A stretch of 64,000 nucleotides of DNA from Spongiibacter nanhainus (GTDB taxonomy: Bacteria; Pseudomonadota; Gammaproteobacteria; Pseudomonadales; Spongiibacteraceae). The notes beneath the pieces are model-generated. The model saw nothing but the letters and a program-made list of their open reading frames with translations. It made no database searches and was not told the DNA's origin. Position 1 is the stretch's first letter; each line of letters begins with the position of its first letter. A program made the position numbers and the translations under genes. The stretch spans positions 2,755,001 to 2,819,000 of the forward strand of contig NZ_CP066167.1 in the NCBI RefSeq assembly GCF_016132545.1. Reading direction: 5' to 3'. Of the stretch, positions 7,083 to 64,000 are shown one piece after another.

Positions 7083-8624
7083 TCAGCAGCACCAAAAGCT
7101 GATGCTGTTAGGGGCCAAAGCTCCGGGAAAGGGGATTGCTTCAAAGTGCGCTAATTTTACCCTGCCCTTTTTAAAGCGCAGCTTTTTGCCATTTAGCCTC
7201 ACCTTGCGGCTGGTAAGCGACTTTGCTGTGAGCTCATATCCCCCGGTGATACGATCGCCAATCTCCGGTGGCAGCACCACCTCCACACGACGAGCCGTAA
7301 GATTAATCAGCAACAATACTCGGCCCTCTTCCTTGGCCGAGTGCAGATAACAGCGAATATAGGGCGTATTGCTGTCGATAGCGTACACGCGCTGCCCCAT
7401 CAACTGCCCCCACAGCCAGCTCACCCAGTAATCCGGCCGAGGTTTTAAGGTAAGGCGGCTTATCATGCCGTAGTCACCGCCAATCAGCGATTGCCTAACC
7501 ATCACCCCTTGTCCCTGCCGAGCCCCCATGCCCAGTTGATCGGCCCACCAAAAGCTCGATACCCAGCGGTCGGATAGCTCAGGCTGTCCGCCGCACTGGG
7601 CCGAGCCCGTTTCCCCGGTCCACAACATGGCATTGGGTTGATAGCGATCACGCAATACCCGCAGCCGTTGACTATAGCTGCGGAAATACTCAAAGGACTT
7701 GGGGTCAAGCAAATGACGGATACGGGCCCGCCGGGTGCGAACCGGACTGCGATCGCTTTGAAAGGGATAGTAATGCCAGTCGACTATATCCAGATCAAAG
7801 CCCAAGTGAGATAAAAATTTGGGGGTAATATTGGAGATAGGCCGCACGGTCTCCCCCAGCCTAGGCCAAAAGGCGCTGCCAGGGCCGGAGATCTTCGCCC
7901 CGGGATAGTACGAGAGCACACTCTGCCGAAATTGACTGTAGTCCCTGGCGAGATTGACCGCCCTGGGCTGGGACATTAAGCCGTGGAAGGCCCAATAGGC
8001 GTTCAGCTCATTACCCAACTCAAAGACGTCGATATGGTAACCCCGATCCCGGCTGTAATTTAGCAAGGCCTCAAGTTCAGTGCCCAGCCATCGCCCGTGG
8101 TGCTCGCGCTTAAAGAGGCCATATTTGCAGGTAAATACCAGCTTTAAGTCATTGCGATCCAGAAAGGCATGCAGGTCATCCCACTGCTCCCGGGTCAACA
8201 CCAGAGCATTGGCATCGCCGGCGGGTCTTTCAAAGTAGTGAATTTTATCCGCCTCGGACCCACCAACCCGCAGATAGGCCGGACCCAATAACTGCACCAG
8301 CCGATCCAGCTTCTCGGAGTCGAGAGCCAGCGGAGGTGTACGCAGGGTGCCCAGACCCCGGCGGGTATTCAGGGCGCCCTCCCACCAAAAGCCACCGGCA
8401 AGCACCGAGATATCAACGGAGAAAGACAAATAGCGCCGATCGATTTCAGCCACTATATTGTTGCCAGGCAGGGTCAAGTTGGCGCGGGTGAGAGGCGGCG
8501 CTGACGGAGCCCAGCACACAGCCACTAACTGGCGTAAAAGCCGCCCGCAATAAGTGTAAACGAGCCACACATTGCGTTTCAGCTGTATCGCGTTAATACC
8601 GTCTCTCCTGTTTGGGCCACCCAT
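7083..8624 (-). CDS. GH79-like glycoside hydrolase (heparanase/beta-glucuronidase family)
   Basis: 513-aa (beta/alpha)8-barrel glycosidase. It has the heparanase-type strand LRVGGSEADKIHYF (118-131), the acid/base motif ELGNELNAYW with Glu206, the nucleophile motif LWTGETGSAQCGG with Glu338, then VMVRQSLIGGDYGMI and PDYWVSWLWGQLMG as in GH79 proteins. Both catalytic glutamates are present. Family members cleave beta-linked glucuronides (heparan sulfate, plant glucuronides, 4-O-methyl-glucuronosyl chains). The N-terminus has a short hydrophobic stretch (about 29-40) but no clear signal peptide, so location is uncertain; a GTG near 8570 is an alternative start. A second family member lies at 57128-58708. 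It could remove a sugar acid from the substrate of the surrounding catabolic genes (inference). Confidence 0.75.
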   Translation of the reverse strand: MGGPNRRDGINAIQLKRNVWLVYTYCGRLLRQLVAVCWAPSAPPLTRANLTLPGNNIVAEIDRRYLSFSVDISVLAGGFWWEGALNTRRGLGTLRTPPLALDSEKLDRLVQLLGPAYLRVGGSEADKIHYFERPAGDANALVLTREQWDDLHAFLDRNDLKLVFTCKYGLFKREHHGRWLGTELEALLNYSRDRGYHIDVFELGNELNAYWAFHGLMSQPRAVNLARDYSQFRQSVLSYYPGAKISGPGSAFWPRLGETVRPISNITPKFLSHLGFDLDIVDWHYYPFQSDRSPVRTRRARIRHLLDPKSFEYFRSYSQRLRVLRDRYQPNAMLWTGETGSAQCGGQPELSDRWVSSFWWADQLGMGARQGQGVMVRQSLIGGDYGMISRLTLKPRPDYWVSWLWGQLMGQRVYAIDSNTPYIRCYLHSAKEEGRVLLLINLTARRVEVVLPPEIGDRITGGYELTAKSLTSRKVRLNGKKLRFKKGRVKLAHFEAIPFPGALAPNSISFWCC

Positions 8625-34732: not shown

Positions 34733-35902
34733 ATGAACACACCTTACCCCACTCTCAATTTCGGTCTCGGTGAAGAGATCGACATGCTGCGAGATATGAC
34801 CTACAACCTCGCCAAAACTGAACTGGCGCCCCGAGCGGAGGAGATCGACCGGGACAACGCCTTCCCCATGGATATGTGGAAGAAGTTCGGCGACCTCGGT
34901 TTGCTGGGTATCACCGTTAGCGAGGAATACGGGGGCAGCGACATGGGCTACCTGGCCCACTGCGTGGCAATGGAAGAAATTAGCCGTGCCTCAGCGTCGG
35001 TGGGCCTGTCTTACGGCGCGCACTCCAATCTGTGCGTTAACCAGATTTATAAAAACGGCAACGACGCCCAGCGCAGTCAATACCTGCCCAAGCTGTGCAG
35101 CGGCGAGCACATTGGCGCCCTGGCGATGTCCGAACCCAATGCCGGCTCGGACGTAGTGAGCATGAAACTGCGGGCCGAGAAAAAGGGCGATCGCTACATC
35201 CTCAACGGCAACAAAATGTGGATCACTAACGGCCCAGATGCCCATGTGTATGTGATCTACGCCAAGACTGACCCAGAGGCCGGCCCCCGGGGCATGACCG
35301 CCTTTATTGTCGAGCGGGACTTCCCCGGTTTTTCTCGGGCGCAGAAGCTGGACAAGCTGGGAATGCGGGGTTCCAACACCTGTGAGCTGGTGTTTGAGAA
35401 CTGCGAAGTGCCGGAAGAAAACGTATTGGGCGAAGTGGGTCGCGGCGTCAATGTACTGATGAGCGGTTTGGACTATGAGCGCACCGTGTTATCCGGTGGG
35501 CCGGTGGGCATTATGCAGGCTTGCCTGGACGTGGTGGTGCCCTACCTCCACGACCGCAAACAGTTTGGTCAGAGCATCGGTGAATTCCAACTGATGCAGG
35601 GCAAAGTGGCCGACATGTACACCGAATTGAATGCCAGCCGCGCCTATCTCTATGCGGTAGCCCGGGCTTGCGATCGCGGCGAAGAGAGCCGCAAGGACGC
35701 CGCTGCGGTCATCCTGTACACCGCAGAGCGCGCCACCCAAACCGCATTGCAAGCGATTCAAACACTGGGCGGCAACGGCTATATCAACGAATACCCCACT
35801 GGCCGCTTGCTGCGAGATGCCAAGCTTTACGAGATTGGCGCCGGCACCTCGGAAATTCGCCGAATGCTGATCGGTCGCGAGCTGTTTAAAGAGACAGCCT
35901 AG
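34733..35902 (+). CDS. liuA: Isovaleryl-CoA dehydrogenase
   Basis: 389-aa FAD-dependent acyl-CoA dehydrogenase that oxidises isovaleryl-CoA to 3-methylcrotonyl-CoA in leucine breakdown. The catalytic base position is Glu249 in [14 protein letters not shown], the helix location specific to isovaleryl-CoA dehydrogenase; straight-chain enzymes use a later Glu. [20 protein letters not shown] and [11 protein letters not shown] are family signatures, and the C-terminus has [19 protein letters not shown]. It follows liuR by 14 bp and precedes the carboxylase genes, matching the standard liu order. Confidence 0.93.
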
Positions 35903-35978
35903 ATCACCGCAAGCCAGGAAGAAACTGCATAAGAAAGCGGTTTAAGCAGAATAAAACGCCAACAGGACTGAAAACCTC

Positions 35979-37586
35979 ATGCCCGTTCTAAAAAGCACGA
36001 TTAACACACAGAGCGAGGAGTTTCTCGCCAACGCCGAGGCGATGCGGGAGCAGAATGACGCTCTGCATGATGCCTGTGCCCATATCCGCAACGGCGGCGG
36101 TGAAAAAGCCCGGGAGCGGCACCTGTCCCGGGGTAAATTACTGCCCCGCCAACGTATCGACGCCCTCCTGGACCCCGGCTCGCCGTTTTTAGAAATTTCC
36201 CAGTTGGCCGCCTGGAAGGTCTATGGCGAGGATGTTCCCGCCGCTGGCGTGGTGGCCGGCATCGGTCAGGTCAGTGGCGTGGAGTGCATGATTGTCGCCA
36301 ACGACGCCACGGTGAAAGGCGGCTCTTACTATCCCCTCACCGTTAAAAAGCACCTGCGCGCCCAGACCATCGCCGAGCAGAACCGCCTGCCCTGCATTTA
36401 CCTGGTGGACTCCGGCGGCGCCAACCTGCCTCAGCAGGATGAGGTGTTTCCCGACCGGGATCACTTTGGCCGCATCTTTTTCAATCAGGCCAATATGTCC
36501 GCCAAAGGTATCCCCCAAATCGCTGTGGTGATGGGTTCCTGCACCGCCGGCGGCGCTTACGTGCCCGCCATGGCGGACGAGACCATTATCGTCAAGGAAC
36601 AGGGCACCATCTTTCTCGCCGGGCCGCCCCTGGTGCGAGCAGCCACTGGCGAGGTAGTCACCGCCGAAGAGCTGGGCGGCGCCGATGTGCACTGCCGCCA
36701 GTCCGGTGTGGCCGACCACTACGCCCAAAACGACGAGCACGCTATTCAGATGGCCCGCGCCTCAGTTGCGCGTCTCAATTGGAAAAAACCCCAACAACTG
36801 GAGGTTACCGAGGCCAAGCCACCTCGCTACGCCGCCGAGGAAGTCTACGGCATCATTCCTGCCGACACTCGCAAACCATTTGATGTCAGGGACATTATTG
36901 CCCGCATTGTCGATGGTTCCGAGTTCGACGAATTTAAAGCGTTGTACGGCACCACCCTGGTCTGCGGTTTCGCCCGACTGTACGGCTATCCGGTGGGCAT
37001 CGTTGCCAACAACGGCATCCTGTTCAGCGAGTCGGCGCAAAAAGGCGCCCACTTTATCGAGCTGTGCGCCCAGCGCAAAATTCCGCTGATATTCCTGCAA
37101 AACATCACCGGTTTTATGGTGGGCAAGCAATACGAAGCCGGCGGCATAGCGCGTAACGGCGCCAAAATGGTCATGGCGGTCGCCTGTGCCAAGGTCCCCA
37201 AGTTCACCGTGGTCATTGGCGGTTCCTATGGCGCCGGCAACTACGGCATGTGTGGCCGCGCCTACGAGCCCCGTTTTATGTATATGTGGCCCAATGCCCG
37301 CATCGCAGTAATGGGCGGCGAGCAGGCCGCCGGTGTGTTGGCCCAGATCAAGCGGGAGCAGTACCAGCGCAATAAACAGGAGTGGTCAGAGGAAGAGGAG
37401 CAGGCCTTTAAGCAGCCCATCCTCGATAAGTTCGAGGAGCAGAGCCATCCCTTTTACGCCTCGGCCCGGCTCTGGGATGACGGTGTCATCGACCCCGCCG
37501 ACACACGCCGGGTACTCGGACTCAGTCTGTCCGCCAGCCTTAACGCCGATATCCCCGACAGCCAGTTTGGCGTGTTCCGGATGTAA
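35979..37586 (+). CDS. liuB: Methylcrotonyl-CoA carboxylase beta (carboxyltransferase) subunit
   Basis: 535-aa carboxyltransferase subunit that transfers CO2 from carboxybiotin to 3-methylcrotonyl-CoA. Both crotonase-like carboxyltransferase halves are present (N-terminal half with [17 protein letters not shown]-terminal half with [24 protein letters not shown] and [19 protein letters not shown]). Length fits MCC-beta. The same fold serves geranyl-CoA carboxylase, so that substrate cannot be excluded, but LiuR, isovaleryl-CoA dehydrogenase and the MCC-alpha neighbour favour leucine breakdown. Intergenic gap to liuA is 76 bp. Confidence 0.92.
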
Positions 37587-37609
37587 TCACAGCGGATTGG
37601 AGAGAGATC

Positions 37610-39616
37610 ATGTTTAACAGTGTATTAATAGCCAACCGCGGTGAAATTGCCTGTCGGGTTATTCGCACCCTGCGTCGCCTGGGTATACGCAGCATAGCCG
37701 TTTACAGCGATGCCGACCGCAACGCTCTGCATGTGGAAATGGCCGACGACGCCATCTACCTGGGCGGTGCCGCTGCCAGCGAGTCCTACCTGGATGTCGA
37801 TAAAGTCATTGCCGCTGCGAAGCAAAGCGGCGCCGATGCCATTCACCCCGGCTACGGTTTTCTGTCGGAGAATGCCGGCTTCTGCCAGCGCTGTGACGAA
37901 GCGGGCATCGTGTTTATCGGCCCGCCGGTAGGCGCCATTGAGGCCATGGGCTCCAAGTCCATGTCCAAACGCATTATGGCCGAGGCCGGCGTCCCACTGC
38001 TGCCCGGTTATCACGGCGACGATCAGGATGAGGCCTTGCTGCGCAATACCGCAGCCGACATCGGCTACCCGGTGCTGCTCAAAGCCAGCGCCGGCGGCGG
38101 CGGTAAAGGCATGCGCATCATCTGGTCGGAAAGCGAATTCAGCGATGCCCTGGCCGGCGCCAAGCGGGAGGCCACCAAGGCTTTCGGCGACGACAAAATG
38201 TTGGTGGAAAAATACCTCACTGGCCCCCGGCATGTTGAAGTCCAAGTCTTTTGCGACAGCCACGGCAACGGTGTGCACCTCTTTGAACGGGACTGCTCAT
38301 TGCAACGCCGCCACCAAAAAGTCATCGAAGAAGCGCCGGCCCCCAAAATGACCGACACGCTGCGTCAGACCATGGGTGATGCCGCAGTTCAGGCCGCCAA
38401 GGCGATCAATTACTGCGGCGCTGGCACGGTAGAGTTCCTGCTGGCTGACAGCGGCGAGTTCTACTTTATGGAGATGAACACCCGGCTGCAGGTAGAACAC
38501 CCGGTCACCGAAATGATTACCGGTCAGGATCTAGTGGAATGGCAGCTTCAGGTTGCCAGTGGCGGCGAGCTGCCCAAAAACCAAGAGCAGCTGGCCATCA
38601 ATGGTCACGCCTTTGAAGCCCGGATCTATGCCGAAGACACCGACAATCAATTTTTGCCCCAAACTGGCCGTGTGGATCACTTTCAGCTTCCCGAACTTAG
38701 CGATCATGTACGCATCGATTCCGGCGTGCGCGCCGGCGATGATATATCGGTGTACTACGACCCGATGATTGCCAAACTGGTGGTATGGGGTCCGGATCGC
38801 CGCAGTGCTCTGCGACGCTTGGGCAAGGCGCTGTCGGAATACCACATTGGTGGTGTCACCACCAACCGCCGCTTCTTGCAGCAACTGGCTGCCAGCGAGG
38901 ACTTTGCCGCCGAGCAGTTCGATACCGGCTTTATCGACAGCCACCTGGAAACCCTGCACAGCGAAGCGGCCGCACAGCGCGACACAGATCGGCAGCGGGA
39001 TATGGCCCTGGCGGCGCTGGTATTACTAAGCGAACAACACAGCCACTCATTAGACGCCAACACGGCCTCGCCCTGGGCCAGCCAATTTGGCTGGCGGCTC
39101 AATGCGCCGGCCCAGCAAACCCTGCGCATGCATTTTGGCGAAGACGCCATCAACCTGGTGGCCGAGTTTAATCGAGACGAGTCGTTAAGCTGCGTTTATA
39201 TCGATGGTATCACTGTGAATATCAGCGGCCACTGCGCCGATAACACCGTATTTGCAGAAGTAGATGGCCGCCGCTACCAGTTTGCCTACTGCCGGGAAGC
39301 CGGCAGCGAGCAAGATGGCTATTGCCTGTTCACCGATCGGGCCGACGTTAAATTCAGCGCTGTCGATGTCGACTTCCTCCACGCCGAGGACAGCGCCGGC
39401 GAGCTGACCGCCCCCATGAATGGCACTATAGTCAGCCTGTTAGTCGAGCCCGGGACAGCGGTTAAGAAAGGCACGCCGCTGCTGGTGATGGAGGCCATGA
39501 AGATGGAGCACAGCATCGCCGCACCTGAAGATGGCGCCGTCGCGGAGTTTTTCTTTGCGGCCGGCCAGCTGGTAGAAGGTGGTGCCGAGCTACTGCGCTT
39601 TGAGGAGCAGAGCTAA
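37610..39616 (+). CDS. liuD: Methylcrotonyl-CoA carboxylase alpha (biotin carboxylase) subunit
   Basis: 668-aa biotin-dependent carboxylase subunit. The N-terminal biotin carboxylase part (about 1-450) has the ATP-grasp loop KASAGGGGKGM and the EMNTRLQVEHPVTE motif. A middle domain links to the C-terminal biotinyl domain, in which Lys631 of VMEAMKMEHS is the biotin attachment site. Partner of the preceding carboxyltransferase. The stop (TAA) overlaps the next ATG by one base, so translation of the hydratase is coupled. AGAGAGATC precedes the start. Confidence 0.93.
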   Translation: MFNSVLIANRGEIACRVIRTLRRLGIRSIAVYSDADRNALHVEMADDAIYLGGAAASESYLDVDKVIAAAKQSGADAIHPGYGFLSENAGFCQRCDEAGIVFIGPPVGAIEAMGSKSMSKRIMAEAGVPLLPGYHGDDQDEALLRNTAADIGYPVLLKASAGGGGKGMRIIWSESEFSDALAGAKREATKAFGDDKMLVEKYLTGPRHVEVQVFCDSHGNGVHLFERDCSLQRRHQKVIEEAPAPKMTDTLRQTMGDAAVQAAKAINYCGAGTVEFLLADSGEFYFMEMNTRLQVEHPVTEMITGQDLVEWQLQVASGGELPKNQEQLAINGHAFEARIYAEDTDNQFLPQTGRVDHFQLPELSDHVRIDSGVRAGDDISVYYDPMIAKLVVWGPDRRSALRRLGKALSEYHIGGVTTNRRFLQQLAASEDFAAEQFDTGFIDSHLETLHSEAAAQRDTDRQRDMALAALVLLSEQHSHSLDANTASPWASQFGWRLNAPAQQTLRMHFGEDAINLVAEFNRDESLSCVYIDGITVNISGHCADNTVFAEVDGRRYQFAYCREAGSEQDGYCLFTDRADVKFSAVDVDFLHAEDSAGELTAPMNGTIVSLLVEPGTAVKKGTPLLVMEAMKMEHSIAAPEDGAVAEFFFAAGQLVEGGAELLRFEEQS

Positions 39617-40398
39617 TGTCGACGCCTCTTTACACTGTTGATGATCGCGGCGTCGCCACCGTAACCTTGTCTCAGCCCGAAATACACAACGCCTTCGACG
39701 ACGCCGTGATCGCGACCTTGAGCGAGGCCTTTGCCGGGATTGCCGAAGACCGGCGGGTAAAGGCTATGGTGCTGGCCTCCACCGGCAAGAGTTTTAGCGC
39801 TGGTGCCGACCTTAACTGGATGCGGCGCATGGCCTCCTACAACGTGGAGCAAAATAACGCCGATGCCAGCAAGTTGGCGGAGATGCTGCGACGGCTTAAT
39901 ACTTTGCCGGTGGTCACCATCGCTCGGGTTCAGGGCGCGGCCTTTGGTGGTGGTGTCGGCTTGGTCAGTTGTTGCGATATCGCCGTGGCCGCGCCAGAAG
40001 CAAGCTTCTGCCTGAGCGAAGTTAAAATCGGCTTGATCCCCGCCACCATCAGCCCCTATGTAATCAATGCAATTGGCGAGCGAGCGGCCCGGCGCTACTT
40101 CACCACCGCCGAAGTGATCAGCGCCGACAAGGCCTTGGAGCTGGGCTTGGTTTCAGAGCGAGTAGACAGCGCCGAGCAACTCGACGAGGCTGTCGAACAG
40201 ATTCTAAAGAGCGTACTGCGCAACGGCCCCGATGCCATGGCCGCGGCAAAATCACTGGTATTGGATTATGCCAACCGCCAGATAGACGACGCACTGATCG
40301 CCGACAGCAGCCGGCGCATAGCCGAAACCCGGGTTAGCTCAGAAGGCCAGGAAGGCTTGACCGCTTTCCTGGAAAAACGCCGACCCGACTGGAGATAA
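39616..40398 (+). CDS. liuC: Methylglutaconyl-CoA hydratase (enoyl-CoA hydratase family)
   Basis: 260-aa crotonase-fold enzyme expected to hydrate 3-methylglutaconyl-CoA to HMG-CoA. The oxyanion hole lies in STGKSFSAGADLNWM and VQGAAFGGGVGLVSCCDIAVA. SEVKIGLIPATISPYVINAIGERAARRYFTTAEVI is typical of the liuC group. It starts at the stop of the biotin carboxylase gene. The C-terminal EGQEGLTAFLEKRRPDW is common in crotonases. Confidence 0.92.
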   Translation: MSTPLYTVDDRGVATVTLSQPEIHNAFDDAVIATLSEAFAGIAEDRRVKAMVLASTGKSFSAGADLNWMRRMASYNVEQNNADASKLAEMLRRLNTLPVVTIARVQGAAFGGGVGLVSCCDIAVAAPEASFCLSEVKIGLIPATISPYVINAIGERAARRYFTTAEVISADKALELGLVSERVDSAEQLDEAVEQILKSVLRNGPDAMAAAKSLVLDYANRQIDDALIADSSRRIAETRVSSEGQEGLTAFLEKRRPDWR

Positions 40399-40475
40399 AC
40401 CTGCCCGGTCGAGCTTTTATAGCGTCCGGTGCAACCATTCACCAATAACACACCACTGACAAATAGGTAGCGATT

Positions 40476-41843
40476 ATGAGCGATAAAACAGTATTGATCG
40501 CCAACGGCCAGGGCTTCTGGGGCGACAGCCTCCTCGGCCCAAAACGCCTGGTGGAGGAAGGCCCCCTCGACTACTTGACCTTGGACTATCTGGCCGAGGT
40601 CACCATGAGCATTATGCAGAAGCAAAAACTGCGCAATCCGGAGGCCGGTTACGCCACCGATTTTGTCGCCATGCTCAAGGAGATTCTGCCTACCTGTAAA
40701 GAGAAAGGCATTAAAGTGATCGCCAACGCCGGCGGCGTTAACCCCAAGGGCTGCATGAAGGCCATTCAGGGTGTTATCAAGGAGCTGGGCCTCACTGGTT
40801 TAAAAATCGGCGTGGTGGAAGGCGACGATATCCTCGACCAACTTCCCGAGTTAATGAAGTCCGGCGAGCAATTTAAAAATCTGGATAACGGCGAAGCGGT
40901 GGAAACCATCCTCGACCGTATCTCCAGCGCCAATGTCTACATCGGTGCCAAGCCCATCGTCGAAGCCCTGGACCAGGGCGCCGATATTGTGGTCACCGGC
41001 CGCGCCACTGACCCGTCGCTGGTGGTCGCGCCCCTGATTCACGAATTCGGTTGGTCCTTCGACGACTACGACAAACTCGCTGCCGGCACAGTGATGGGCC
41101 ATATACTCGAGTGCGGCGCCCAGTGCACCGGCGGTAACTACTGCGACTGGCGGGCAGTTCCCGATTTTGCCCGCATCGGCTACCCGGTGGTAGAGGCGAA
41201 AGCCGACGGCACCTTTACCGTCACCAAGCACGAAGGTACCGGCGGTCTGGTTAACGTCGATACTGTCACTTCTCAGTTGCTCTATGAACTGGGTGACCCC
41301 AAAGGTTATCTGGGTCCCGACTGCCAATCTGATTTCACTACTATCCACCTGGAACAGGACGGCGACAATCGGGTGAAAGTGTCCGGCATCAAGGGCAGCG
41401 CGCCAACGCCCACCTACAAAGTCTCCATGTCTTACGAGAACGGCTACAAAGTGCTGGGGCAGTTGACCTACACCGGCCCCGACGCTGTGGCCAAAGCCGA
41501 ACTGGCGGCGCAGATTCTGTTTGACCGGGTCGCCCTCTACGGCGAGGCGATTCCTGAGAAAGACCGCTTTGTGGAAATCTTCGGAACCAACGTGTGCTAC
41601 AAGGGCATCGTCAAGCAGAGCGAAGAACCTTCAGAAGTATTGCTCCGGGTGGGCGCCAAAAGCTACAACAAGAACCTGCTCAATTTATTGGGCCGGGAAG
41701 TCGCACCGCTGATTACCAGCGGCCCCGTTGGCGTGACCGGCTTTGCCGGTGGCCGCCCCCGCCCCACCGAGATCGTGGGCTACTGGCCGGCGCTGATCGA
41801 CAAAACCAAAGTCTCTACCACTGTCACCGTTGAGGAGGTCTGA
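40476..41843 (+). CDS. AtuA-type protein (acyclic terpene utilization family, DUF1446)
   Basis: 455-aa protein of the DUF1446/AtuA family. VLIANGQGFWGDSLLGPKRLVEEGPLDYLTLDYLAEVTMSI at the start, VIANAGGVNPKGC and DIVVTGRATDPSLVVAPLIHEFGW in the middle are family signatures. AtuA is required for acyclic terpene use in Pseudomonas, but its reaction is unknown; the family is also common in leucine and branched-acyl-CoA clusters, as here. The family's full-length members carry a C-terminal ~100-aa domain, which here is encoded as the separate next gene (2 bp gap). It may replace or assist a step after the HMG-CoA branch. Confidence 0.85.
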   Translation: MSDKTVLIANGQGFWGDSLLGPKRLVEEGPLDYLTLDYLAEVTMSIMQKQKLRNPEAGYATDFVAMLKEILPTCKEKGIKVIANAGGVNPKGCMKAIQGVIKELGLTGLKIGVVEGDDILDQLPELMKSGEQFKNLDNGEAVETILDRISSANVYIGAKPIVEALDQGADIVVTGRATDPSLVVAPLIHEFGWSFDDYDKLAAGTVMGHILECGAQCTGGNYCDWRAVPDFARIGYPVVEAKADGTFTVTKHEGTGGLVNVDTVTSQLLYELGDPKGYLGPDCQSDFTTIHLEQDGDNRVKVSGIKGSAPTPTYKVSMSYENGYKVLGQLTYTGPDAVAKAELAAQILFDRVALYGEAIPEKDRFVEIFGTNVCYKGIVKQSEEPSEVLLRVGAKSYNKNLLNLLGREVAPLITSGPVGVTGFAGGRPRPTEIVGYWPALIDKTKVSTTVTVEEV

Positions 41844-57127: not shown

Positions 57128-58708
57128 GTGAAATCACGCGCTTTTCTCAAAACTGGTGCTGCTGCACTCGCTTTATTGATACAGAATTCAGCGTCCGCTA
57201 TGTCCACTCCTCCGCAGGAACAACAGGGTCATACTCAGCTTGATGTGACGAACATACCACTGGTGCGAACCGTGGACGAGCGCTATCAGTCATTCCAAAT
57301 TGGCATGTCACACCTAACCGGTGGCGAAACTTGGCGTACTTATGACGACAGCAAAGGCGAGGGCGAAGTAGGACAAGCGGAGCAGTTTGAGGCGGTCCGC
57401 GAAGCCCGATCACCTGCCAACCTGGCTCATCCGCGATTGCGAACATTGGCAGGCGCACTAGGGCCTTTTTACGTCCGCTTTGGAGGAACAACAACAAATG
57501 CGGTCTACTTTCAAAACAATGACGAGCCCAGGCTGGAAACACCCCCAAAGGGATTTCTGACCGTGTTAACACGAAAGTCGTGGAAAGGCGCACTGGAGTT
57601 TGCCGAGGCAGTAGACGCCAAAATCGTTACTGGCTTTACCGTCAGTGACGGTGTGCGTGACGAAGACGGCACCTGGACACCCAGACACGCGGCTCCCTGG
57701 CTAAACTACACTCACTCCGAGGGCGGCGCCATCTATGCGGCAGAACTATTCAATGAGCCCAATGCTCCAGAACCAGGCCGGATGCCAGAGGGGGAAAGCG
57801 CCAAACACTATGCCAGAGATTTCGCTATTTTCAGTCAATTTATGGCGAAACATGCCCCTGATGTGAAGCTGGCGGGACCCGGTGTGGCAACATTGGGAGT
57901 GCCAGTAAAAGTGCCTTCATTGGAGCACACCTCCCCAGAACAGTACATGACGGCAAACCCTCGCCCAAATTTCGATATTGTGTCATACCACTTCTATGGC
58001 GCAATTGCAGAACGATGCGCGCCCCCGGATTCCCCTGCCGGTGTTAGTGCCGACCAGGCTCTCACTGAGTCGTGGCTGGCGCGACCAGACCAGAAATTTC
58101 AAGAGCATAAATCACTTAGAGACACCTACGCTGCCAATGCCCCGATTTGGCTGACTGAAACAGGGGCCGCTGCATGCGGAGGGACACGCTGGCAACCAAC
58201 CTTCCTGGATAGCTTTCGTTATCTGGATACCCTTGCTCGCCTGGCCAAACAGGGACTGGACGCCATCATCACCCACGCACTGATCAGCGGTAGCAATGGC
58301 ATCATCGACGAAAAGACCTTCCAACCCAATGCCAGTTACTGGGCTGCTCTACTGTGGCGCCGGCTAATGGGTACCCGCATCTTGGATGCGGGGTCAGGCA
58401 GTGATGGCCTACATATTTATGCACACTGTCAGCGGAACAATACTGGTGGCGTCACTGTGCTGGCAATTAATCTGCAAAAGACCGAGGCCAAGCTGTCGCT
58501 GTCTGGGTATCCACATCACTATGCGCTTACCGCCAGGGAATTGAACAGCAAAACTGTGATGCTCAATAATCGTGCGCTGCTGCTGGATCAACACGATTCA
58601 CTCCCTGCCATAAATGGCGTGGAGCGAAAGACAAAGCAGGTGAGCCTCTCTCCCAGCAGCATTAACTTCCTGGTTATTCCAGAAGCAGCGAACCCCGCCT
58701 GCCAATAG
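57128..58708 (+). CDS. GH79-like secreted glycoside hydrolase (heparanase/glucuronidase family)
   Basis: 526-aa protein starting at GTG 57128. It has a clear Sec signal (MKSRAFLKTGAAALALLIQNSASA, cleavage after about residue 24), then a TIM-barrel GH79 pattern. FYVRFGGTTTNAVYF (114-128), ELFNEPNAPE with acid/base Glu210, and WLTETGAAACGG with nucleophile Glu344 are the active-site regions, and SYWAALLWRRLMGTRIL follows. It is paralogous to 7083-8624 in the same motifs but strongly diverged. Expected location is the periplasm or outside the cell. It precedes the cytochrome/DUF1592/DUF1552 operon and shares an upstream motif with it; the combination suggests sugar-acid release linked to an extracytoplasmic oxidation. 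Confidence 0.78.
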   Translation: MKSRAFLKTGAAALALLIQNSASAMSTPPQEQQGHTQLDVTNIPLVRTVDERYQSFQIGMSHLTGGETWRTYDDSKGEGEVGQAEQFEAVREARSPANLAHPRLRTLAGALGPFYVRFGGTTTNAVYFQNNDEPRLETPPKGFLTVLTRKSWKGALEFAEAVDAKIVTGFTVSDGVRDEDGTWTPRHAAPWLNYTHSEGGAIYAAELFNEPNAPEPGRMPEGESAKHYARDFAIFSQFMAKHAPDVKLAGPGVATLGVPVKVPSLEHTSPEQYMTANPRPNFDIVSYHFYGAIAERCAPPDSPAGVSADQALTESWLARPDQKFQEHKSLRDTYAANAPIWLTETGAAACGGTRWQPTFLDSFRYLDTLARLAKQGLDAIITHALISGSNGIIDEKTFQPNASYWAALLWRRLMGTRILDAGSGSDGLHIYAHCQRNNTGGVTVLAINLQKTEAKLSLSGYPHHYALTARELNSKTVMLNNRALLLDQHDSLPAINGVERKTKQVSLSPSSINFLVIPEAANPACQ

Positions 58709-58834
58709 AAATCGGCAGCTTGCGCCACTACTGTTCGCGTCAACCCGATGCATCTTAATCGGCACCACCCCCTACCTCGGTGCCTCCGTCCTGTTATTAG
58801 GGCGACCGTGGAAATTAGGTACTTCAACCTGTCC

Positions 58835-58856
58835 ATTTCAGGTTCCTTTAAGCCTG
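58835..58856. promoter_or_regulatory. Shared 22-bp motif upstream of cytochrome operon
   Basis: ATTTCAGGTTCCTTTAAG followed by CCTG lies 33 bp before the cytochrome start and matches the copy at 56973-56994 at 19 of 22 positions. One factor probably controls both the GH79 gene and the redox operon. Confidence 0.55.
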
Positions 58857-58889
58857 GTGGTTTCTTATGGCCCCACTAATAACAAGAGA

Positions 58890-60182
58890 ATGGTTAATGT
58901 TGTGGGACTTTCGCGTCAACTGATATACGCGCTTTGCGGCGTCACAGCACTGCTGGTGGTGTTAAGCGCCTACGCGACGATGGGAGGCTTGCGCGCCGGT
59001 GATGCTCTTCCTGCGCCCCGGCTGGAGTCCCTCAATGCATCGGTCGAAAGCGGTCGTTATCTGGCGCGGGCCGGCAATTGCTACGCCTGCCATACCAGCG
59101 ACGGCAGCGAGCCCTATTCGGGCGGGGTAGCCTTTCACACACCTTTCGGTACGCTGTATTCCACCAACATTACTCCAGATCGACGCACCGGCCTGGGGGA
59201 GTGGAAGTTCGCGGATTTTTATCGGGCAATGAAGCTCGGTATTGGCAAAGAAGGCCAGCATCTCTATCCGGCTTTCCCCTACACCAACTACGCCAAGCTC
59301 AACGATGCCGACATCGGCTCTCTGTACCTATTTCTTCAAAGTAGAGAGCCTGTACATGCTCCGGCACGGCCCAATGAGCTGGACTTTCCCTTCAGCCAGC
59401 GGCAAATGCTGGCGGGGTGGAAATGGCTGTATCACGATGATAGCGCCTTCACCCCGGAGTCCAGCAAATCTGCCGTGTGGAATCGCGGTGCGTATTTGGT
59501 GGAGGGCCCAGGGCACTGTGGCGCCTGCCACACCCCCCGCAATGCCTTGGGCGCAGAGCAGACCGAGCTGGCGTTTAGCGGTGGCATACAAATGGCCAAG
59601 ACCAAACTCGGTCAGTACCGGCGCTGGTCTGCCGTCAACCTTACCAGTGACGGAAGCGGGCTAGCCAGCTGGTCAGTTAAGGATATCGTGGACTATCTCA
59701 AAACCGGGAAGTCTGACAAATCCATCGTCCATGGTCCGATGCGGGAAGTGGTGATGCACTCAACACGCTACCTGACTGAAAGTGACCTGCGTGCCATGGC
59801 CATTTATTTAAAAGATCTGCCTGCCCGCAGACTGGGTAGTGGCCCTAAAGCGACAGAGCAACAGTTGCAAAGCGGCGAGCTGGTGTACACCGTTCACTGT
59901 GGCTCCTGCCACTTGCCAACCGGCCTTGGGGCAGAAGGGCTCGGTGTGACCTTGCACCAAAACCCCATCATCCAGGCCGCCGATCCGTCATCCCTGATCA
60001 ACGTCATCCTGTATGGGCCCCACCTTCCCGGGCCACCGTTTTCAGTGGATCGAAGCCCCATGAAAATGTTCGGCAAGCGTCTGTCGGATGAGGATATTGC
60101 GGCGGTGGCAAGTTACCTTCGCGCTAACTTCAACAACGACGCTGGCGCCGTGACTAGCGAACAGGTGAATGTCCAGCGATGA
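58890..60182 (+). CDS. Membrane-anchored tri-heme cytochrome c
   Basis: 430-aa protein with one N-terminal membrane segment (about 11-31, LIYALCGVTALLVVLSAYATM) and a periplasmic part with three c-type heme motifs: CYACH (64-68), CGACH (210-214) and CGSCH (337-341). The layout resembles the cytochrome subunit of membrane alcohol/gluconate dehydrogenases, which passes electrons from a dehydrogenase to quinone or an oxidase. No PQQ- or FAD-dehydrogenase subunit is next to it; the next genes are of unknown type. Start 58890 is chosen over a GTG at 58857 with moderate certainty. The stop overlaps the next start (ATGA). Confidence 0.85.
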   Translation: MVNVVGLSRQLIYALCGVTALLVVLSAYATMGGLRAGDALPAPRLESLNASVESGRYLARAGNCYACHTSDGSEPYSGGVAFHTPFGTLYSTNITPDRRTGLGEWKFADFYRAMKLGIGKEGQHLYPAFPYTNYAKLNDADIGSLYLFLQSREPVHAPARPNELDFPFSQRQMLAGWKWLYHDDSAFTPESSKSAVWNRGAYLVEGPGHCGACHTPRNALGAEQTELAFSGGIQMAKTKLGQYRRWSAVNLTSDGSGLASWSVKDIVDYLKTGKSDKSIVHGPMREVVMHSTRYLTESDLRAMAIYLKDLPARRLGSGPKATEQQLQSGELVYTVHCGSCHLPTGLGAEGLGVTLHQNPIIQAADPSSLINVILYGPHLPGPPFSVDRSPMKMFGKRLSDEDIAAVASYLRANFNNDAGAVTSEQVNVQR

Positions 60183-61354
60183 AGCAGCCAACAACACATT
60201 TATCCCTACTCTCGGTTCTAGCCCTCAGCAGCTTTGCAGCGGTGGCCAGCCCGCCTTTTGTAAAGGATGGCACAGCGGGGTTTGTGATATCCGATTTCGC
60301 CTATGCTCTGGGCCCGGACGCCGCCGGAACCCCGTCCTGCCCCGACGGACTCAGCCGAAATCTGGAAGAAATTTACAGCATCCTCAACCAGGTGAAGCGT
60401 GGCCCCAACGAGACAGAACAGGCCTTCGACGAGCGATTAAAACAGGGAGCGAAAACCCTGGCTACCGGGGAGAATGGACAGCATTTGTGTATGCATCCCG
60501 AGGCGGGTAGTCCCGACCCTTTCTATAAAACCCTGCAGGGCTCTACCATTACCGCCGAGGGTATCGACCTCGACGGAAAAAATGACAAAGACGATTTCAC
60601 CGGGGCAGATGGTACGACCGGCATCGATAATCAGTTTTATCGAGCGGTGGGCTGCAGTCGATCGTTTCAGTCCTCGGGGCAATCCAACGGATTTGTCGTG
60701 GAGATGTTGACTGGTGCCTGGGGCATCGTCATTGAACTGCGAGGTGTCGATAACATTCGTAACGATGACCATGTCGAGGTCACCATTGCGGCAAATGCCG
60801 ACCCCATTCAGCTCAGCGCTTCTCGGCAAGCTCTCCCTTACGCGACTTACGCCATGGATCAAGACCCGCTTTATCGAGGTATTACCCGTGGACGCATCAA
60901 AGACGGGCGGCTTGTCACCGAACCTGTGACGCTGCGGTTTCACAGTTCGGTGAACAGTATGCAGCTGCAGCGGCCTTTGTTGGAGGGGCGGATTGATGCC
61001 CAACTGAGTGAAGACGGCACAATCAAAGGCATTCTGGCTGGCTACACACCGGTCGAGGCGCTGTACGATTTTCAGTACGGCTATCGCAATGGCACCACAC
61101 AAACGGGTGAACTGGCCCCTTTGGGCCTCAGACTTGGCTCGGCCAGCGGCGCTGCTGCGGTGCTCGGTCACACCTGTCACGGGGCCTACCACGCTTTGTA
61201 TCAACATGCCGACGCCATGCCGGACCCCGAAACAGGCGCCATGACAGCCGTGTCTACACAATACCGCTTTGAAGCCGTACCCGCATTTGTGGTGGACACT
61301 GAAACCTCAAGTCTAAATGCCCAGCTGGCACCAGCTTCGGGGAGGTATCAATGA
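60179..61354 (+). CDS. Exported protein of unknown function
   Basis: 391-aa protein with a Sec signal (about 1-24, cleaved after AVA|SP) and no further membrane segments. It has six or so cysteines, some beside His (HLCMHP near 100, HTCHGAYH near 341). GIDLDGKNDKDDFTGADGTTGIDNQFYRAVGCSRSF is a Ca-like acidic, Asp/Gly-rich stretch. I do not recognise the family. It starts inside the last codon of the cytochrome gene and ends overlapping the next start, so it is made in coupled fashion with both. It may be a substrate-binding or redox partner of the operon, but no function is assigned. Confidence 0.65.
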   Translation: MKQPTTHLSLLSVLALSSFAAVASPPFVKDGTAGFVISDFAYALGPDAAGTPSCPDGLSRNLEEIYSILNQVKRGPNETEQAFDERLKQGAKTLATGENGQHLCMHPEAGSPDPFYKTLQGSTITAEGIDLDGKNDKDDFTGADGTTGIDNQFYRAVGCSRSFQSSGQSNGFVVEMLTGAWGIVIELRGVDNIRNDDHVEVTIAANADPIQLSASRQALPYATYAMDQDPLYRGITRGRIKDGRLVTEPVTLRFHSSVNSMQLQRPLLEGRIDAQLSEDGTIKGILAGYTPVEALYDFQYGYRNGTTQTGELAPLGLRLGSASGAAAVLGHTCHGAYHALYQHADAMPDPETGAMTAVSTQYRFEAVPAFVVDTETSSLNAQLAPASGRYQ

Positions 61355-63015
61355 ACAGGCACATCTCAATCATCGCGACGCTAATCGCAGTCGCGTTGAT
61401 GATCACAGGCTGCGATAAAATTCCCACTGCAGTCGACCACCGGGCGGAACCCGACCCCGTCGGCGGGCCGCCGCTGTTACGGAGGCTCACCGAATCCCAA
61501 TATCGCGCCACCATCGCCGATATCTTCGGCCAGGAGGTCCCCATTGCGGCTCGCTTTGGCCGGGCTCTGCGCAGCGAGGGGCTGATCGCGATAGGCACTG
61601 GCCATGCCGGCGTGTCCCCCTACAGCATGGAGCAATATGACGTAGCAGCAAACGGTATCGCTGAATTCATAACCGCCGAACAGCGACGCGCTCAGTACCT
61701 TCCCTGCGCCCCTGAACCCAGCTCCGACTTTGATATGGCCTGTGCCACAGACATTATCACCCACTTTGGCTCAAGGCTGTTCAGGCGACCTCTGAGCAAC
61801 ACACAAGTCTCTCGCTATGTCAGCCAGGCGAAGCTCGGCGCAGAAAAGCTTGGGGATTTCTACCATGGACTTCACTTTGCCTTGGTGGGGTTACTGACTG
61901 CCCCAGAGTTTATTTTCCGCATCGAGCGTGTTGACCGCGCGCAGGGCGAGCTTGCCGAATTAGACGCCTACTCCAAAGCCTCGCGACTGAGCTACTTTCT
62001 TACCAATTCAACGCCGGACCCCGAACTGATGCATGCCGCCGAGTCCGGTGAACTAGACACTCAAGCTGGACTGGAAAAACATGTTGATCGACTGCTTTCA
62101 TCGGCGAAGTTCAATCAGGCTTTGCGCGCCTTTTTTGCAGACATGCTGGAATTTGAGCTATTCGATGACGTTGCCAAGGATGCGGCAATTTACCCCGCCT
62201 ATAATTCCACTGTTGCCATGGATGCCCAGGAGCAAACACTGCGAACCGTGCTGTATCACCTGGTAGAGAAGCATGGGGATTACCGGGAACTGTTTACCCT
62301 CAAGGAAACCTTCCTGACCCGTGCACTCGGTATTGTCTACCGCCTGCCAGTGCCAACTCGCAATGGCTGGGAAAAAACCCACTTTCCCGACGACAGTGAG
62401 CGCGCCGGTATTCAAAGCCATATTTCATTTCTCAGTCTGCACTCTCATCCGGGCCGCTCGTCCCCAACACTGAGGGGCATGGCAGTACGGGAGGTCTTCT
62501 TGTGTCAGGAGGTACCCGACCCTCCCCCCGACGTCGACTTCAGCGCGATAGATGATCCCGACGGCAACCCAATGCCCACCGCCAGAGATCGACTGTGGGC
62601 GCACAATAGCCAGCCTGCGTGTGCGGGTTGCCATAAAATCATGGATCCGCCAGGTCTAGCATTGGAAAACTTTGACGGTATTGGCACTTGGCGCAAGACA
62701 GAAAACGAGGCTGTGATAGATGCCAGCGGTACACTGGATGGCTTCGACTTCAGTAATCCTGTGGAATTTGGCGCGGCGCTGGCCAAGCACCCGGAAACAC
62801 CACGCTGCCTCACTGAAAAACTGTATCGCTTTGCCGTCGGTCGGGACACGGTGTGGGAGGAGCGAGCCTACATGGACTACCTCATCGACCAGTTTGCCCA
62901 GCACAACTATCGCGTTCCGGATCTAATGCGCACTATTGCGCTCAGCGACAATTTTTTTGCTATAAGCCAGCCGCAGCCCTCGCTGCCCCTCGCCCATCGG
63001 GAAGGAGTCAAATAA
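61351..63015 (+). CDS. DUF1592/DUF1588-type lipoprotein with heme motif
   Basis: 554-aa lipoprotein. The signal ends in the lipobox ITGC with Cys21. The rest follows the DUF1587-DUF1592-DUF1588-DUF1585 order: PLLRRLTESQYRATIADIFG (about 45-64), a helical middle, VFLCQEVPDPPPDVDFSAID, then a heme-like CAGCH at 424-428 in QPACAGCHKIMDPPGLALENFDGIGTWR, and a C-terminal EKLYRFAVGRD. Such proteins, frequent in Planctomycetes and some Proteobacteria, are of unknown function. ATGA overlap with the previous gene. The next gene is the usual companion, DUF1552. Confidence 0.85.
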   Translation: MNRHISIIATLIAVALMITGCDKIPTAVDHRAEPDPVGGPPLLRRLTESQYRATIADIFGQEVPIAARFGRALRSEGLIAIGTGHAGVSPYSMEQYDVAANGIAEFITAEQRRAQYLPCAPEPSSDFDMACATDIITHFGSRLFRRPLSNTQVSRYVSQAKLGAEKLGDFYHGLHFALVGLLTAPEFIFRIERVDRAQGELAELDAYSKASRLSYFLTNSTPDPELMHAAESGELDTQAGLEKHVDRLLSSAKFNQALRAFFADMLEFELFDDVAKDAAIYPAYNSTVAMDAQEQTLRTVLYHLVEKHGDYRELFTLKETFLTRALGIVYRLPVPTRNGWEKTHFPDDSERAGIQSHISFLSLHSHPGRSSPTLRGMAVREVFLCQEVPDPPPDVDFSAIDDPDGNPMPTARDRLWAHNSQPACAGCHKIMDPPGLALENFDGIGTWRKTENEAVIDASGTLDGFDFSNPVEFGAALAKHPETPRCLTEKLYRFAVGRDTVWEERAYMDYLIDQFAQHNYRVPDLMRTIALSDNFFAISQPQPSLPLAHREGVK

Positions 63016-64000
63016 TGAGTTTTCTGATTAAAAACTCCAAATCTGCCAACAACTCCACCAACACTGCAATCTCACGAAGGGGCTTCCTTCGGGGCACACT
63101 AAAAGGTGCCGCTGTGGGGATGGCATTACCGCTGCTGGACTGCTTTCTCAACGACTCTGGCCGCGTATTCGCCGCAACGGGCCAGCGCATTCCGCTGCGT
63201 TTCGGCACCTGGATTTGGGGCTGCGGTCATATCCCCGAGCTATGGGTACCCTCGCAAACGGGCCGGGATTACGTAATGCCTACACACTTGGCGCCGATTG
63301 CTCCGTACCGAGATAAAATTGCGTTATTGAGTGGATTTGATGTCAAGCTGGACGGCGTGCCCAACAAGCCCCATGTCACCGGTTGCTTCGGCCTTCGTAC
63401 CGGCATACCCGTCCCCAACCGTGAGGTTAAAGCCCCCACCTTTGATGTACTGATCGCTGATGCCATCGCCGACACCCGTTTTCGCTCCATTGAGATGTGC
63501 ACTTCGGCAAAGCAGGCCTCCTATTCCTACCGGGATGCAGGTTCGCCCAATCCCAGTGAAACATCGCCACTGGCGCTTTATCAGCGCTTGTTTGGCGAGG
63601 GCTTTCGGAATCCCAACGATGCTGTTTTTACTCCAGACCCAGGCTATATGGTACACAAGAGCGTACTGTCAGCAGTGCAGGAAGAACGCCGGGCCCTGCT
63701 CCAGGTTGTGGGCGCGGAGGACCGCCACAGACTGGATGAGTATTTCACTTCAGTTAGGGAGCTTGAACAAAAAATGGCCCTGCAGTTACAGCCCCCGGCC
63801 CCGGTTGAGAACTTTACCATGCCAACTCCCCCCTCCGCTTTCACTGTGGATGCTGAAATCGACAATGTAATGGAAAACCACCGGATTATGTCGCAACTGC
63901 TGGCAAGAGCCCTTCAGTGCAACCAAACCAAAGTATTCAATATGTTGTTTTCTGATACTGCCTCTAATTTACGACGTCCAGGGGTAACCTCTACCCACCA
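63015..64000 (+). CDS. Tat-exported DUF1552-family protein (truncated by window end)
   Basis: Reading frame open from ATG 63015 to the window end, 328 codons visible. The N-terminus has a twin-arginine signal (ISRRGFLRGTLKGAAVGMALPLLDCFL), then RIPLRFGTWIWGCGHIPELWVP, YVMPTHLAPIAPYRDKIALLSGFD, YMVHKSVLSAVQEERRALLQVVGAEDRHRLDEYFTSVRELEQKM and NHRIMSQLLARALQCNQTKVFNMLFSD, all typical of DUF1552. Members are often paired with DUF1588/1592 proteins and export folded, perhaps with a bound cofactor. GAAGGAGTCAAATA is the SD; the start overlaps the preceding stop by one base. Function unknown. Confidence 0.88.
   Translation, partial: MSFLIKNSKSANNSTNTAISRRGFLRGTLKGAAVGMALPLLDCFLNDSGRVFAATGQRIPLRFGTWIWGCGHIPELWVPSQTGRDYVMPTHLAPIAPYRDKIALLSGFDVKLDGVPNKPHVTGCFGLRTGIPVPNREVKAPTFDVLIADAIADTRFRSIEMCTSAKQASYSYRDAGSPNPSETSPLALYQRLFGEGFRNPNDAVFTPDPGYMVHKSVLSAVQEERRALLQVVGAEDRHRLDEYFTSVRELEQKMALQLQPPAPVENFTMPTPPSAFTVDAEIDNVMENHRIMSQLLARALQCNQTKVFNMLFSDTASNLRRPGVTSTH

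What the first reader, a model, noticed from the sequence alone, without database searches (positions are those of the whole stretch)
57128..64000. Uncharacterised extracytoplasmic redox operon next to a secreted GH79-like enzyme
Seen: a Sec-exported GH79-like protein, a membrane-anchored tri-heme cytochrome c, an unrecognised exported protein, a DUF1592/DUF1588 lipoprotein carrying its own CXXCH, and a Tat-exported DUF1552 protein. The last four are coupled by ATGA or TAATG overlaps. Known: DUF1592/DUF1552 pairs are common in Planctomycetes and lack a defined function. Inference: a periplasmic complex in which DUF1552/DUF1592 proteins oxidise or transform a sugar- or lipid-derived compound released by GH79 and pass electrons through the cytochrome to the respiratory chain.
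Basis: partly seen in the sequence, partly recalled or inferred. Interest (0 to 1): 0.8.

Follow-up and report, generated by a model that had tools for sequence, protein, structure and literature searches.

The report
Cytochrome-linked oxidation module near glycosidases
Overlapping genes in a marine bacterium encode exported proteins that look like one electron-passing machine built around two widespread protein families of unknown function, and relatives of it lie near genes that look like saponin-deglycosylating enzymes, which makes its role testable.

Summary
The genes are as described; the DUF1552 gene runs past the window end (63015 to about 64388). Genome: Zhongshania-like. The constant unit is X-DUF1592-DUF1552 with a c-type cytochrome nearby, X being an exported ~390-residue family without a Pfam or NCBIfam model. 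Of 25 X+DUF1592 loci examined, 24 have a cytochrome in the held stretch: tri-haem in 18, class II c' in 6 (three of these also cytochrome b561). A GH79 relative is near in 1 of 25 loci of the genome scan; GH2 or GH106 in six others. In Sphingobium sp. TomTYG73 the unit lies on a plasmid 12 kb from a GH3/GH106/GH78 set whose counterparts in strain RC1 deglycosylate steroid saponins, with a KshA-like gene on the other side. DUF1592 is the haem module called X132 in Cellvibrio Cbp2D, whose loss harms growth on cellulose. DUF1552 has a low-confidence alkaline-phosphatase-type predicted fold. Best reading: an extracytoplasmic, cytochrome-coupled oxidoreductase acting on glycosides or their aglycones, possibly saponin- or terpenoid-like. 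The electron-transfer link rests on genomics; substrate, chemistry and complex formation are inferred.

The parts
57128..58708 (+). GH79-like exported glycosidase (accessory, not part of the conserved unit); candidate catalytic Glu 210 (NEP) and 344 (TETG), motif reading from recall
   Evidence: PF03662 over cut-off; PDB heparanase/hyaluronoglucuronidase relatives; motif positions
58857..60182 (+). Tri-haem, probably membrane-anchored cytochrome c related to cytochrome subunits of glucose, alcohol and fructose dehydrogenases; only clear copy in the genome
   Evidence: Three CXXCH; 8hdd_B, 8gy2_B, 7w2j_C; the only other genome match is E 3.5e-4 over query residues 334-432
60179..61354 (+). X: exported protein of an unnamed family, predicted barrel-rich; Cys 54, 104, 159 and 333 conserved in the 120 listed relatives
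   Evidence: 574 homologues at E<=0.001, conservation, model pLDDT 88.7, no PDB fold match at E<=1e-3
61351..63015 (+). DUF1587-1595-1592-1588-1585 lipoprotein with one haem-binding CXXCH (the X132 module of Cbp2D)
   Evidence: Pfam; the two Cys and the His of CXXCH invariant in 17 of 17 aligned proteins
63015..64000 (+). DUF1552 (HXXSHH) Tat-exported protein; continues to about 64388 in the genome
   Evidence: PF07586 153 bits; full gene L005:10016-11389; alkaline-phosphatase-type predicted fold of the Z. aquimaris orthologue, low-confidence model

Best explanation
X, the haem-carrying DUF1592 lipoprotein and the Tat-exported DUF1552 protein form one extracytoplasmic oxidoreductase. X and DUF1552 (an alkaline-phosphatase-type fold with conserved histidines) bind and activate a substrate; the DUF1588 haem takes the electrons and hands them to the nearby cytochrome, which feeds the quinone pool or oxidases. 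The substrate is a glycoside or its freed aglycone, most likely saponin- or terpenoid-like; a neighbouring exported glycosidase (GH79 here; GH2, GH106, GH3 or GH78 elsewhere) removes sugars. Shown by sequence: the gene unit, haem motifs, export signals, a cytochrome nearby and its replacement by another cytochrome class, and the neighbourhood of saponin-type glycosidases in Sphingobium. Inferred: complex formation, direction of electron flow, which protein is catalytic, and the substrate.
For: DUF1592 follows X in 20 of 25 named loci, and DUF1552 follows in all 17 of these whose contig goes on. Cytochrome in the held stretch of 24 of 25 X+DUF1592 loci, with a class switch. Five of five non-X pairs have extra CXXCH motifs in the DUF1592 frame, one with a domain matching Cbp2D X183, PDB 7b21, E 1.3e-4. 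Seven of 120 listed proteins have CBM2 + YceI + cytochrome + DUF1587..1588, the Cbp2D layout (PMC8981238 passages). The tri-haem cytochrome belongs to the family of sugar and alcohol dehydrogenase complexes. pTomTYG73a: unit near GH78-GH106-GH3 and a KshA-like gene, the GH families and order matching those reported for saponin-degrading RC1. A KshA-like gene, one gene away, flanks the Z. aquimaris unit too. 4 of 15 GH2 matches of 18 genomes lie in the X stretches, 0.07 expected.
Against: No biochemistry. No redox cofactor besides haem c was recognised. L018 and L024 encode Gluconate_2-dh3 and a GMC dehydrogenase just downstream, and a gene annotated choline dehydrogenase is near the lone X of L067, so the cytochrome could serve such enzymes. 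X occurs without DUF1592 in L024, L032-L035 and L067. DUF1552 may be a hydrolase: a Ser/Thr at 142, next to Asp 144, is kept in the subtypes compared. Tomatine induction of the unit could not be checked (supplement not open to me). The Sphingobium GH3, GH106 and GH78 have no counterpart in the window, L005 or L059; the genome has no GH106 or GH2 match. The GH2 test was chosen after GH2 had been seen and the genomes are not independent. The 11 Tom plasmids are few lineages. 18 of 25 scanned loci showed no glycosidase in my calls, which did not cover every neighbour.
Confidence: 0.47

Rival explanations
1. The unit acts on a polysaccharide or on polysaccharide-cutting partners at the cell surface, as proposed for Cbp2D in Cellvibrio: DUF1592 carries electrons between membrane and a polymer-cutting enzyme, and the lipoprotein form is only a CBM-free variant.
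For: The DUF1592 module equals X132 of Cbp2D by architecture; loss of cbp2D or cbp2E harms growth on insoluble cellulose (PMC12542752 and PMC8981238 passages); a Cellvibrio CBM2 + DUF1592 protein is listed in a lignocellulose community table (PMC6004670 passage); glycosidases recur nearby.
Against: No carbohydrate-binding module was found in the window proteins; neighbours include KshA-like, Rieske and acyl-CoA dehydrogenase genes that point to aglycone-type catabolism. Whether LPMO genes lie near was not tested.
Confidence: 0.2
2. The tri-haem or c' cytochrome serves a separate dehydrogenase (GMC or PQQ type), and X, DUF1592 and DUF1552 are a carrier or chaperone set for hydrophobic ligands.
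Against: The window genome has no Gluconate_2-dh3 match and its three GMC matches lie elsewhere; Gluconate_2-dh3 was found in 2 of 114 neighbours scanned; DUF1592 has its own invariant haem motif. PQQ enzymes were not searched.
Confidence: 0.15
3. DUF1552 is a metal-dependent hydrolase (sulfate, phosphate or ester) of the alkaline phosphatase superfamily and the haem proteins have an unrelated or structural role.
Against: Model confidence is low (pLDDT 63.4) and Foldseek TM-scores are about 0.3; the family always travels with a haem protein in the loci examined.
Confidence: 0.15

Closest known systems
PSCyt3/DUF1592-DUF1552 pairs of Planctomycetes and Verrucomicrobia
   Same: Same two protein families side by side (PMC5615132, passages only: PSCyt2 and PSCyt3 genes usually next to two families of unknown genes, function unknown)
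   Different: Adds X and a separate cytochrome; the DUF1592 protein has a single haem motif and a lipobox
Cbp2D (X132 module) of Cellvibrio japonicus and TERTU_3803/2913 of Teredinibacter
   Same: DUF1587..1585 haem module, linked to other haem domains, exported, carbohydrate setting
   Different: No CBM, YceI or X183 domain; partners are X, DUF1552 and a membrane cytochrome
Cytochrome subunits of quinone-linked alcohol, glucose and fructose dehydrogenases (8gy2, 8hdd, 7w2j)
   Same: The tri-haem cytochrome is homologous over most of its length to 8hdd_B and 8gy2_B
   Different: No catalytic PQQ or FAD subunit was recognised next to it
Steroid-saponin catabolic plasmid region of Sphingobium (SpGH3-1, SpGH106-1, SpGH78-1; PMC10653915)
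   Same: The matching region of pTomTYG73a has X-DUF1592-DUF1552 with cytochrome c' and b561 within 12 kb of the GH set
   Different: Other glycosidase families and another cytochrome in the window; 36, 44 and 52% protein identity for X, DUF1592 and DUF1552

Membership tests
DUF1592/DUF1552 (PSD/PSCyt3 + HXXSHH) pair | PSD and PSCyt3 domains in one protein and PF07586 in the neighbour | tested here: met
DUF1592/DUF1552 (PSD/PSCyt3 + HXXSHH) pair | Haem c motif in DUF1588 | tested here: met
Quinone-linked dehydrogenase cytochrome subunit | Homology and three CXXCH | tested here: met
Quinone-linked dehydrogenase complex | GMC + Gluconate_2-dh3 subunits encoded with the cytochrome | tested here: not met
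   Not in the operon; no PF13618 match in the genome; GMC matches elsewhere; PQQ subunits not searched
Cbp2D-type protein | DUF1587..1585 (X132) module | tested here: met
   literature passages; Cbp2D's own sequence was not at hand
Cbp2D-type protein | CBM2, YceI (X158) and X183 in the same chain | tested here: not met
Alkaline phosphatase superfamily (DUF1552) | Fold | tested here: inconclusive
   Strong agreement among listed matches but a low-confidence model of the Z. aquimaris orthologue
Alkaline phosphatase superfamily (DUF1552) | Conserved Ser/Thr/Cys nucleophile at the usual place | tested here: inconclusive
   Ser/Thr 142 is a candidate; no superposition possible without coordinates
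Alkaline phosphatase superfamily (DUF1552) | Two-metal ligand set | tested here: inconclusive
   His 329, 333, 393 at frequency 1.0 and Asp 144, 377 at 0.99 in 137 sequences; no coordinates available
GH79 | PF03662 over cut-off | tested here: met
GH79 | Both catalytic glutamates | tested here: inconclusive
   Motifs at 209-211 and 343-346; no residue-level alignment made
Sphingobium-type saponin locus | GH3, GH106 and GH78 orthologues next to the unit | tested here: not met
   No hit in window, L005 or L059 at E<=1e-6

The most novel reading that the evidence does not exclude
X-DUF1592-DUF1552 is a new class of extracytoplasmic oxidoreductase, with a haem c relay and a metal centre in an alkaline-phosphatase-type fold, that oxidises steroid or triterpenoid glycosides or their aglycones (for example the sapogenin steps between deglycosylation and ring degradation) and plugs into whichever cytochrome the host offers.
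Probability: 0.25. Interest if true: 0.85.

Novelty: new variant of a known kind. Interest (0 to 1): 0.62.

Why it matters
DUF1592 and DUF1552 are common in bacteria and have no tested function in the papers I found (3369 DUF1552 relatives at E<=0.001, which scored 7997 candidates). This unit is a compact form with a fixed third partner and a nearby electron carrier, and it has a genetic setting (tomatine-degrading Sphingobium) in which deletion and substrate tests are direct. It also ties Cbp2D's X132 domain, whose role in cellulose use is open, to DUF1552.

Tried and rejected

An earlier version of this reading, that DUF1552 lacks a conserved nucleophile, did not stand: one search shows Ser/Thr 142 kept in all seven divergent sequences printed. 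I therefore raised the hydrolase rival from 0.10 to 0.15 and lowered the best explanation from 0.50 to 0.47 and the novel case from 0.27 to 0.25.

Literature: searches listed no paper that, by title, abstract start or the passages I opened, tests DUF1552 or the X unit. PMC2754498 was seen in listings only; PMC7789669 only names DUF1592 in a table; PMC5122149 passages discuss DUF1501/DUF1800 with chitin synthases.

Rows dropped before counts: L006 and L013 are the same Z. aquimaris locus and count once. Of 13 plasmid records with X I opened four (L064-L067; L068 is more of the L064 plasmid) and left nine unopened; L067 has X without DUF1592 beside it and is outside the 25. The neighbours scanned were 114 of 117 that passed length, codon-position GC and distance filters; the three longest were left out for the residue limit, two of them looked at later. 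One search shows 25 of 93 families.

Full report
Observation. The five genes are present at the stated places. The GH79-like gene (57128-58708) is followed after 148 bases by a tri-haem cytochrome c gene, X, a DUF1592 lipoprotein gene and a DUF1552 gene; the last three junctions are ATGA, ATGA and TAATG. DUF1552 ends outside the window, at about 64388 in window numbering. Downstream follow what reads as a two-component pair, a 719-residue exported protein, a TonB receptor and a lipoprotein with a weak GH39 match (24.3 bits, cut-off 26, on the part first held; no Pfam match at E<=1e-5 for the full gene).

Organism. The nearest named genome carrying the unit is Zhongshania aquimaris, which is G008 of the own genus. 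X was found in 2 of the 18 genomes of the genus group (G000-G017), the own one included, and DUF1552 in the same two, so the unit is patchy and may pass between lineages.

The constant unit. X has no Pfam match at E<=1, no NCBIfam match at E<=0.1 and 574 homologues at E<=0.001 (7997 candidates were scored). A scan of one genome per species gave 25 loci. DUF1592 follows X in 20 of 25 (broken across frames in L016 and L027). DUF1552 follows in all 17 of these whose contig goes on (in L023 only 58 residues of it are held; L015, L016 and L022 end before it). The other five: L024 keeps a DUF1552 remnant of 98 residues; L032-L035 have X without either. In nine loci a TetR-like gene lies between X and the divergent cytochrome (10 of 114 neighbours match TetR_N).

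The cytochrome. In the 20 named loci with DUF1592, a tri-haem cytochrome like that of the window lies within the held stretch in 16 (in L036 broken across frames), and three of the other four (L029, L030, L031) have two class II cytochromes c', one directly after DUF1552. L016 has none in its stretch. Adding the window, L007 and the plasmid loci L064-L066 gives 18 tri-haem, 6 class II and 1 without: 24 of 25. In L007 the cytochrome is near X but about 7 kb from DUF1592. The three plasmid loci also hold a cytochrome b561; in L066, an unannotated record, both cytochromes rest on tblastn at 41 and 55% identity. The tri-haem protein belongs to the family of cytochrome subunits of glucose, alcohol and fructose dehydrogenases and is the only clear copy in the genome; the genome has no Gluconate_2-dh3 match and three GMC matches, none at this locus. 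Replacement of one cytochrome class by another at the same place is the best sign that the unit needs an electron carrier.

The wider family. Five other gammaproteobacterial genomes in a sample of 369 have DUF1552. None matched X. In stretches of up to 19 kb around them tblastn found no cytochrome of the tri-haem type and no GH79, and the only frames over 150 codons with CXXCH were those of DUF1592 (one contig is 7.5 kb). All five of these frames contain further CXXCH motifs, two to four in all. L055 and L056 are long multidomain proteins; the L056 protein matches solved cellulose-binding domains, flavocytochrome c haem subunits (3vrd, E 1e-31) and, at 774-839, the X183 domain of Cbp2D (7b21, E 1.3e-4). 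Seven of 120 listed relatives of its DUF1592 part (of 544 found) carry CBM2, YceI, cytochrome and DUF1587..1588, the layout reported for Cbp2D: CBM2, X158/YceI, X183, X132, with a DUF1587 annotation (PMC8981238, passages). PMC10916295 prints DUF1687 at that place (passages), perhaps a slip. So X132 is, by architecture, the DUF1592 module. Loss of cbp2D or cbp2E harms growth on insoluble cellulose, and the authors propose direct cutting by a heterodimer, unproven (PMC12542752, passages).

Setting and substrate. Glycosidases recur but the family changes: GH2 in L014, L020, L021, L025; GH106 in L018 and L035 (the latter beside a lone X); a GH79 relative in L029; 7 of 25 loci, a lower bound because not every neighbour was scanned. 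L025 also has a GH3 gene 53% identical to that of pTomTYG73a. Of 15 GH2 matches in 18 genomes, 4 fall in the X stretches, which are 0.45% of the bases (0.07 expected, binomial P 5e-7); the test was chosen after seeing them. Of 15 relatives of the window's GH79 in the same genomes, 2 lie in the X stretches, the window's own and that of L029. Among plasmids X is found in 13 records, 12 of them Sphingobium, 11 of which bear Tom strain names; the same 13 are among the 15 plasmid records with DUF1552. On pTomTYG73a the order is GH78, alpha/beta hydrolase, GH106, GH3, then an efflux set, a TonB receptor, X, DUF1592, DUF1552, cytochrome c', cytochrome b561, acyl-CoA dehydrogenases and a KshA-like Rieske gene (GH78 and hydrolase identified against S. 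herbicidovorans). GH3 to X is 11.8 kb, b561 to the KshA-like gene 7.4 kb.

PMC10653915 (abstract and sections 5, 6, 9, 10 read, other passages by search) reports that its Sphingobium strains degraded alpha-tomatine, that SpGH3-1, SpGH106-1 and SpGH78-1, on a plasmid of RC1, remove sugars from steroid saponins, and that RC1 also degrades the sapogenins but not the oleanane-type saponins tested. That the TomTYG73 genes are the orthologues of these three rests on family and order, not on comparison with RC1, and that TomTYG73 is one of the paper's isolates rests on its name. In TomTYG65 a lone X lies beside a gene annotated beta-xylosidase and near one annotated 3-beta hydroxysteroid dehydrogenase. 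A KshA-like gene also flanks the Z. aquimaris unit, with one gene between it and the cytochrome. The paper's main text has no word beginning with cytochrome and its supplement was not open to me, so induction of the unit is unknown.

Conclusion. The unit is most likely an extracytoplasmic oxidoreductase coupled to cytochrome c that works alongside exported glycosidases. Saponin- or terpenoid-like glycosides are the favoured substrates on neighbourhood evidence; polysaccharides, as for Cbp2D, are the main rival, and a plain hydrolase role of DUF1552 is not excluded.

Noticed in passing
window 7083-8624 (-): A second GH79-like gene, 31% identical to the one in the finding and a stronger PF03662 match.
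   Followed up: partly
window 34733-41843 (+): Acyl-CoA dehydrogenase, carboxyltransferase, biotin carboxylase, enoyl-CoA hydratase and AtuA genes in a row: looks like an acyclic terpene utilisation (atu) cluster (cluster name recalled).
   Followed up: no
L005:13616-15775, also L014, L018, L026, L066: A ~700-residue exported protein, no Pfam match in the L005 copy except PKD, no PDB relative, recurs near X in five loci; a GGSGGG motif suggests an unclassified esterase-type hydrolase.
   Followed up: partly
L007:10590-15682: In G028 the X gene is duplicated, each copy preceded by a PF03640-type secreted-repeat protein (Pfam run on the first only); a PF03640-like stretch also precedes X in L066.
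   Followed up: no
L035:4659-16583: An X without DUF1592 beside a GH106 rhamnosidase and a glucuronoyl-esterase-like gene, with a second X about 4 kb further.
   Followed up: no
L018:10558-12936 and L024:11448-13877: Gluconate_2-dh3 and GMC dehydrogenase genes directly after DUF1552 (or its remnant), a possible further electron donor for the cytochrome.
   Followed up: partly
Sphingobium Tom plasmids (129 rows): Ten of the eleven Tom plasmids hold two places each matching X and two matching DUF1552; the second places were not opened.
   Followed up: no
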